The position numbers and the translations under genes were made by a program. Source: a bacterium (GTDB taxonomy: Bacteria; Vulcanimicrobiota; Vulcanimicrobiia; Vulcanimicrobiales; SCRA01). Taken from it: a stretch of DNA of 64,000 nt. Below, piece by piece: positions 20,035-20,470 of the stretch; within the stretch, counting starts at the first letter, position 1; each line of letters opens with the position of its first letter. The stretch spans positions 1 through 64,000 of the forward strand of contig SCRA01000086.1 in NCBI GenBank assembly GCA_004297985.1. Direction: 5' to 3'. Below the pieces are notes generated by a model. The model searched no databases, was not told where the DNA came from, and saw only the letters and a list, made by a program, of their open reading frames with translations.

Positions 20035-20064
20035 TTGCGCGCGACGCCTGAACATGGGTATACT
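20035..20064 (+). promoter_or_regulatory. Putative promoter for the structured intergenic RNA
   Basis: TTGCGC (20035-20040), N18, TATACT (20059-20064); predicted start about 20071, the first base of the closing-stem arm. Confidence 0.5.
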
Positions 20065-20070
20065 TCTCGC

Positions 20071-20470
20071 GACGGAACCTCGAGTGGTTCGTCGTTGCAG
20101 TAAGGCCGAAGTCTGAGGGCCGCATGAGGCGGCGTCATCCGGTAGCGTTCCGGGCGATCCAACTCAGGCGCTGGATTCCCGCCCTTGCGGGCGGGTTGGA
20201 GATGGCGGGTTCCCGCCGGAAAAGAAGGGGACGGAGCCGCGATGACGGCTCCCGAGCCGACGCCAGAATCGGGTCGGAGTCCGGCGCAATACGCCGCCGG
20301 AAGAGGGCGCAAGGCGCCCGAAAGACGGTCGCGGTGAGGGTCATCCCCGAGCTGCGACGTACGCCGACTGGGGACTAGTGGGCCACTAGCGCCCGGCAAA
20401 CCTCGCAGCGACTCGAGATTACTCGAGGTTTCGTCTTGCCCGCGCTCCAGGTGCCCGTCCCGGCGCGGGC
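20071..20470 (+). ncRNA. Candidate large structured RNA (about 365 nt) closed by a 15-bp terminal stem, followed by a terminator-like hairpin
   Basis: GACGGAACCTCGAGT (20071-20085) pairs with ACTCGAGGTTTCGTC (20421-20435), with one G-U pair. Several perfect internal hairpins, e.g. CCCGCCC-TTGC-GGGCGGG, GGAGCCG-CGATGA-CGGCTCC, CTAGTG-GGC-CACTAG. Trailing inverted repeat GCCCGCGC (20438-20445)/GCGCGGGC (20463-20470). Confidence 0.55.

What the first reader, a model, noticed from the sequence alone, without database searches (positions are those of the whole stretch)
20035..20470. Possible undescribed ~365-nt structured RNA with its own promoter and a 15-bp end-closing stem
In the ~495-bp gap between the ICMT-like gene and thiolase, GACGGAACCTCGAGT (20071-20085) pairs with ACTCGAGGTTTCGTC (20421-20435), 15 bp with one G-U. 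The left arm begins about 7 nt after a TATACT -10 box (TTGCGC-N18-TATACT), so the RNA would start at its own closing stem. Inside are perfect hairpins: GCCGC-ATGAG-GCGGC and CCGG-TAGCGTT-CCGG, both enclosed by CTGAG/CTCAG; CCCGCCC-TTGC-GGGCGGG; GGCGGG-TT-CCCGCC; GGAGCCG-CGATGA-CGGCTCC; CGGCG-CAATA-CGCCG; GGGCGC-AAG-GCGCCC; CTAGTG-GGC-CACTAG. A further inverted repeat GCCCGCGC/GCGCGGGC follows. I did not find conserved cores of RNase P, tmRNA, SRP RNA, 6S, T-box or cobalamin/TPP/SAM riboswitches. CTCGAG-ATTA-CTCGAG at the 3' end competes with the closing stem, so a switching leader for the thiolase gene is an alternative.
Basis: partly seen in the sequence, partly recalled or inferred. Interest (0 to 1): 0.85.

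Follow-up and report, generated by a model that had tools for sequence, protein, structure and literature searches.

The report
Undescribed conserved 365-nt structured bacterial RNA
Between two ordinary genes of an uncultured Eremiobacterota (Vulcanimicrobiota-type) bacterium lies a single-copy, roughly 365-nucleotide RNA gene with a conserved promoter and fold, kept in all four sampled species of the genus and matching no catalogued RNA family, so it looks like a real new RNA whose job is still unknown.

Summary
All named stems are at the stated coordinates, and the 365-nt stretch folds far better than shuffles (z -5.9). The same element sits between the ICMT-like gene and thiolase in all four sampled species of the genus. 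There it is at least as conserved as the flanking genes, with sharp edges at the closing stem. Consensus folding of the four gives z -9.4 against -0.6 to -2.1 for neighbouring coding DNA; six base pairs carry compensatory changes. The -35 TTGCGC, -10 TATACT and CTCG before the start are invariant while the spacer has diverged. There is no antisense coding signal, no second copy and no Rfam match; RNase P, tmRNA, 6S and SRP RNA lie elsewhere in the genome. The competing 3' hairpin (switch idea) is not conserved, and sister-family genomes have the thiolase without the RNA. Best reading: a free-standing, own-promoter, structured noncoding RNA gene confined to one genus; a thiolase leader is the main rival. 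No transcript data exist, and four sequences are too few for strong covariation. Function is inferred, not shown.

The parts
20035..20064 (+). sigma-70-like promoter: -35 TTGCGC (20035-20040), 17-18 nt spacer, -10 TATACT (20059-20064)
   Evidence: Both hexamers, CCCA before the -35, G before the -10 and CTCG (20066-20069) are invariant in four species; only 2 of 17 spacer positions (20041-20057) are. tmRNA and 6S in the same genome also have TTGAC/TA-type motifs upstream.
20071..20435 (+). predicted structured noncoding RNA, about 365 nt
   Evidence: MFE z -5.86; consensus-fold z -9.36 over four species; 84-94% identity, at or above flanking genes and gaps; plus strand folds better than minus in all four species
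20073..20089 (+). closing stem P1, 5' strand (17 bp with 20417-20433)
   Evidence: 17 of 17 pairs invariant in four species
20417..20433 (+). closing stem P1, 3' strand
   Evidence: as above; duplex about -25 kcal/mol in each species
20091..20097 (+). stem P2, 5' strand (pairs with 20406-20412)
20406..20412 (+). stem P2, 3' strand
20111..20169 (+). branch closed by GUCUGAG (20111-20117) / CUCAGGC (20163-20169), enclosing two hairpins (20119-20133; 20134-20158)
   Evidence: Pair 20111-20169 changes G-C to A-U in G001; 20112-20168 U-G to C-G; 20137-20155 G-C to A-U. One A-C mismatch in G001.
20178..20195 (+). hairpin CCCGCCC-TTGC-GGGCGGG
   Evidence: 20182-20191 C-G to U-A in G002
20204..20217 (+). 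hairpin GGCGGG-TT-CCCGCC (outer 5 bp invariant), followed by the invariant purine stretch GGAAAAGAAGGGGA (20218-20231)
20233..20252 (+). hairpin GGAGCCG-CGATGA-CGGCTCC
   Evidence: 7 of 7 pairs invariant
20257..20277 (+). hairpin CCGAC.CC / GGGUCGG
   Evidence: C-G to U-G change tolerated
20280..20301 (+). hairpin UCCGGCG / CGCCGGA with loop of variable length
   Evidence: 20280-20301 U-A to C-G in G002, unpaired C-A in G003; loop indels
20305..20319 (+). hairpin GGGCGC / GCGCCC with loop of variable length
   Evidence: 20308-20316 C-G, U-G, U-A across species
20328..20358 (+). hairpin with internal loop, 20328-20335/20351-20358 and 20338-20340/20345-20347
   Evidence: 20340-20345 G-C to C-G in G002; least well kept helix (93.5% of cells)
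20519..21856 (+). downstream thiolase gene, ATG 83 nt after the RNA
   Evidence: ORF; gap between RNA and ATG only 54-68% identical to G002 and G001, not structured

Best explanation
20071-20435 is a free-standing noncoding RNA gene. It is transcribed rightwards from its own conserved sigma-70-type promoter, starting within a few bases of its closing stem. The transcript folds into a multibranched structure of about ten hairpins whose two ends are locked together by a 17-bp stem (P1) continued by a 7-bp stem (P2). With no conserved intrinsic terminator, transcription probably runs on toward the thiolase, and the 3' end is made by cleavage or trimming at the P1/P2 rod; the finished RNA then acts in trans, most likely as the scaffold of a ribonucleoprotein. 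Shown here: structure conservation, promoter conservation, single copy, non-coding nature, no detectable relative outside one genus. Inferred: transcription itself, the 3'-end processing, and the trans-acting RNP role.
For: Orthologues at the same site in all four sampled species of the genus and none credible elsewhere. RNA identity to G000 of 94/91/84% against 87/77/76.5% for the end of ICMT and 93/90/82% for the thiolase start, dropping sharply outside P1. Consensus-fold z -9.36 on +, against -2.05 to -0.56 for coding neighbours. Six pairs with compensatory change, 1 of 500 shuffles as high; partner-slid controls give 0-2. -35/-10 invariant with a diverged spacer. No coding: the antisense-open frame has equal substitution rates at the three codon positions (0.21, 0.22, 0.21; thiolase control 0.17, 0.10, 0.48) and 1-2-nt indels. 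No Rfam hit. Housekeeping RNAs found elsewhere. In the sister family the thiolase follows ICMT directly or after a CDF-type transporter gene, with no RNA.
Against: No transcription data. Only four sequences, about 92% mean column identity, so covariation is modest (6 pairs) and P1 itself never varies. Two near-isoenergetic global folds remain (alifold -177.6 each). No terminator, so a separate RNA is not proven; the RNA always precedes the thiolase in the known species. No protein partner identified. A few A-C mismatches occur in peripheral helices.
Confidence: 0.57

Rival explanations
1. It is a cis-acting 5' leader (riboswitch, protein-binding leader or thermosensor) of the thiolase / acyl-CoA dehydrogenase / succinyl-CoA synthetase genes, controlling them in response to a ligand or protein.
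For: Always directly upstream of the thiolase, same strand, ATG 83 nt away; no conserved promoter or terminator between. A six-bp hairpin with a T-rich tail at 20412-20427 is the only terminator-like site.
Against: That hairpin falls from -10.1 to -2.4 kcal/mol in G002 and is altered in G001, while P1 stays at -25. The RNA-to-ATG stretch is neither conserved nor structured, so there is no conserved expression platform. Sister-family thiolases do without it.
Confidence: 0.33
2. It is a small mobile element (MITE-like) whose terminal inverted repeats are the two arms of P1.
For: 15-17-bp inverted repeats at both ends of a noncoding 365-bp element absent from the sister family.
Against: Single copy in the 3.2-Mb genome; same site in four species; conserved at or above the level of the coding flanks with paired changes, unlike a decaying insertion; no duplicated target site seen by eye.
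Confidence: 0.03
3. It is a protein-coding gene on the minus strand.
For: One minus-strand frame is free of stops across the 365 nt in each of the four species.
Against: Substitutions are spread evenly over codon positions (25/120, 26/120, 26/121), the frame is broken by 1- and 2-nt indels, and the translated ends do not align. Open frames are common at 67% GC.
Confidence: 0.02
4. It is a strongly diverged form of a known RNA (RNase P, tmRNA, 6S, SRP, OLE, hammerhead-like).
For: Length like RNase P/tmRNA; partial CM similarity of 28 bits to a hammerhead-like element in G134.
Against: RNase P, tmRNA, 6S and SRP RNA are all present elsewhere in the genome above gathering score; no credible Rfam hit at E up to 10. 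The hammerhead core CUGANGA is UUGGAGA here, and no stem III is visible.
Confidence: 0.05

Closest known systems
OLE RNA (ornate, large, extremophilic; PMC11332333, PMC9723947)
   Same: Large, intricate structured RNA with highly conserved blocks; defined as a class by comparative genomics before its function was known
   Different: OLE is about 600 nt, in Bacillota, with known partner proteins; no Rfam OLE match here, and no partner protein identified
GOLLD and ROOL RNAs (PMC12286853)
   Same: Large ornate bacterial RNAs
   Different: No Rfam match in the region; the known classes are much larger (general knowledge), and oligomer formation was not tested here
Orphan motifs from GC-rich intergenic-region searches (PMC11109978, PMC8632094, PMC6429828)
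   Same: Same kind of signal: long GC-rich gap with conserved structure; PMC11109978 expects many thousands more classes
   Different: No Rfam family covers this one, and it is restricted to one uncultured genus; the papers' supplementary motif lists were not searched
6S RNA
   Same: Own-promoter structured RNA with ends closed by a stem
   Different: The genome's 6S is on contig C32; this RNA has many hairpins rather than one long bubble-bearing hairpin

Membership tests
Conserved structured noncoding RNA (general) | Structure conserved across species beyond sequence conservation | tested here: met
   alifold z -9.36 vs controls; 6 compensatory pairs; only four sequences
Conserved structured noncoding RNA (general) | Not protein-coding | tested here: met
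   codon-position test and indels
Conserved structured noncoding RNA (general) | Transcribed as a discrete RNA | not testable with these tools
   promoter conserved but no RNA data
Riboswitch / cis leader of thiolase | Conserved expression platform (terminator or start-site sequestration) | tested here: not met
   hairpin 20412-20427 not conserved; downstream gap unstructured
Riboswitch / cis leader of thiolase | Lies upstream of functionally related genes at several independent loci | tested here: inconclusive
   one locus per genome, one genus; upstream of thiolase each time
RNase P / tmRNA / 6S / SRP RNA | Match to family model | tested here: not met
   no match here; real copies elsewhere
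OLE, GOLLD, ROOL and other Rfam large RNAs | Match to Rfam 15 covariance model | tested here: not met
MITE | Several dispersed copies | tested here: not met
   single copy
Hammerhead ribozyme | CUGANGA ... GAAA core with three stems | tested here: not met
   core reads UUGGAGA; no stem III (sequence)

The most novel reading that the evidence does not exclude
A lineage-restricted, own-promoter large structured RNA of a new class that forms an RNP (or is a ribozyme) in uncultured Eremiobacterota, with no counterpart in any catalogued RNA family.
Probability: 0.45. Interest if true: 0.7.

Novelty: new member of a known kind. Interest (0 to 1): 0.52.

Why it matters
Large structured bacterial RNAs are few, and several of the known ones turned out to have unusual jobs. 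This one is well delimited, single copy, keeps its promoter and fold in every sampled species of its genus, and appears absent from the sister family, so its origin can be placed and its function approached. It also gives a covariance model and exact coordinates for reading metatranscriptomes. Against that, orphan RNA motifs are expected in large numbers (PMC11109978), and a narrow distribution limits general weight.

Tried and rejected
Distant homologues: the full model R1 over order, class and phylum (103, 117, 151 genomes), eight sister-family genomes with looser filters, 26 sister-family thiolase loci, and a core-only model R3 over the phylum. Hits of 17-22 bits outside the genus align with different registers and helices when read one by one and are taken as chance. 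The best outside hit (G134, 27-28 bits) is a repeated element that reads as a hammerhead ribozyme (CUGAGGA, GAAAC, CCCGU/ACGGG), near twister-P5 ribozymes in a phage-like region: not taken as a homologue. The 29-base, 90% identity hit in G070 lies in a phosphatase-like coding region: chance. A DNA pattern of the core in named genomes found the three genus relatives (MAGs FW021_bin.74, FW021_bin.42, REEB356) plus three other exact matches without a significant R1 score. Two viral-contig pattern scans gave nothing. Coding on either strand, mobile element and housekeeping RNA were considered and rejected. Model R2 carried a doubtful long-range helix and was not used. The first alignment (A1) had one sequence in the wrong orientation and was discarded.

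Full report
Setting. The window is on a 94.7-kb contig (C81) of a 3.19-Mb, 96%-complete genome. Names of ICMT homologues (Rubrimentiphilum, Baltobacteraceae, Vulcanimicrobiaceae, Eremiobacteraeota) place it in Eremiobacterota / Vulcanimicrobiota; this is inferred from names, not from a tree. Relatives are MAGs FW021_bin.74, FW021_bin.42 and REEB356 (contig lengths equal those of G001, G003 and G002). The gap 20024-20518 lies between an ICMT-like methyltransferase gene and a thiolase, both on the plus strand.

The observation. The gap has a 19-pair run joining its two ends, against at most 15 in 60 shuffles, and a folding z of -5.86 for 20071-20435. Hairpin density on its own is not exceptional in this GC-rich window, so comparison with relatives was the real test.

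Comparison. The element is single copy and present in all three other held genomes of the genus, always between ICMT and thiolase. Identity of the RNA to G000 is 94, 91 and 84% (G003, G001, G002); for the last 200 bases of ICMT 87, 77 and 76.5%; for the first 600 of the thiolase 93, 90 and 82%; for the gap after the RNA 92, 68 and 54%. The edges of conservation coincide with P1. Consensus folding over the four gives -181.5 kcal/mol against -128 +/- 5.7 for column-shuffled alignments (z -9.4), while neighbouring coding blocks give -0.6 to -2.1 and the flanking gaps nothing. The minus strand also scores (z -7.2), as inverted repeats must, but the plus strand is 11-21 kcal/mol more stable in every species and carries the promoter.

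Structure. P1 (20073-20089/20417-20433) is invariant, so it is neither proved nor disproved by covariation; its exact sequence seems to be under selection too. Supported by compensatory changes: 20111-20169, 20137-20155, 20182-20191, 20280-20301, 20308-20316, 20340-20345. The default RNAalifold fold has 5 such pairs and equal energy, so the inner long-range helices are unsettled.

Promoter. In the 5' flank the -35, the -10 and CTCG before the start are invariant, while the 17-18-nt spacer is almost free (2 of 17 positions invariant). The spacing is 17 or 18 in all species. This is strong indirect evidence for transcription from this site.

Not coding, not mobile, not a known RNA. One antisense frame is open in all four species, a warning sign, but codon positions change equally (0.21, 0.22, 0.21; thiolase 0.17, 0.10, 0.48) and 1-2-nt indels break it. 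Rfam has no credible match. RNase P, tmRNA, 6S and small SRP RNA are elsewhere.

Leader or free RNA. The proposed switch hairpin 20412-20427 drops from -10.1 kcal/mol to -2.4 in G002, while P1 remains at about -25 in each species. The downstream gap shows no conserved structure. In the sister family the thiolase either follows ICMT at once or after a CDF-type transporter gene and has no such RNA upstream. These points favour a free RNA gene that arose or arrived in this genus; they do not exclude a leader, since no terminator separates the RNA from the thiolase.

Range. Covariance models found nothing credible outside the genus. The first-look step of these genome searches scores only a few candidates per genome, so a strongly diverged homologue could be missed.

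Verdict. A genuine, undescribed, conserved structured RNA is very likely (about 0.93). That it is a free-standing trans-acting RNA is the better of two open readings (0.57 against 0.33). Its function is not known; the RNP-scaffold role is inference from its architecture.

Noticed in passing
L082 (G134:C258) 619-693 and 1501-1592; L076 2096-2155 and 2440-2500: A phage-like region of another genome of the phylum carries repeated intergenic elements that read as hammerhead ribozymes (CUGAGGA-stem-GAAAC) not called by Rfam at the thresholds used, alongside twister-P5 ribozymes.
   Followed up: partly
20024-20518 and loci L030-L054: In the sister family the ICMT-thiolase gap usually holds a cation-diffusion-facilitator-like gene (named from its sequence, not run against Pfam), or almost nothing (L051, 11 bp); in this genus it holds the RNA instead.
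   Followed up: partly
20071-20435, minus strand: A stop-free antisense frame persists in all four species without any codon-position signal; a gene caller may wrongly annotate a protein here.
   Followed up: yes
47521-47885: The next most stable 365-nt tile of the window relative to its GC content (-3.1 sd); not examined.
   Followed up: no
L087 488-603: Cobalamin riboswitch (Rfam, 65 bits) in a sister-family genome near a chance hit.
   Followed up: no
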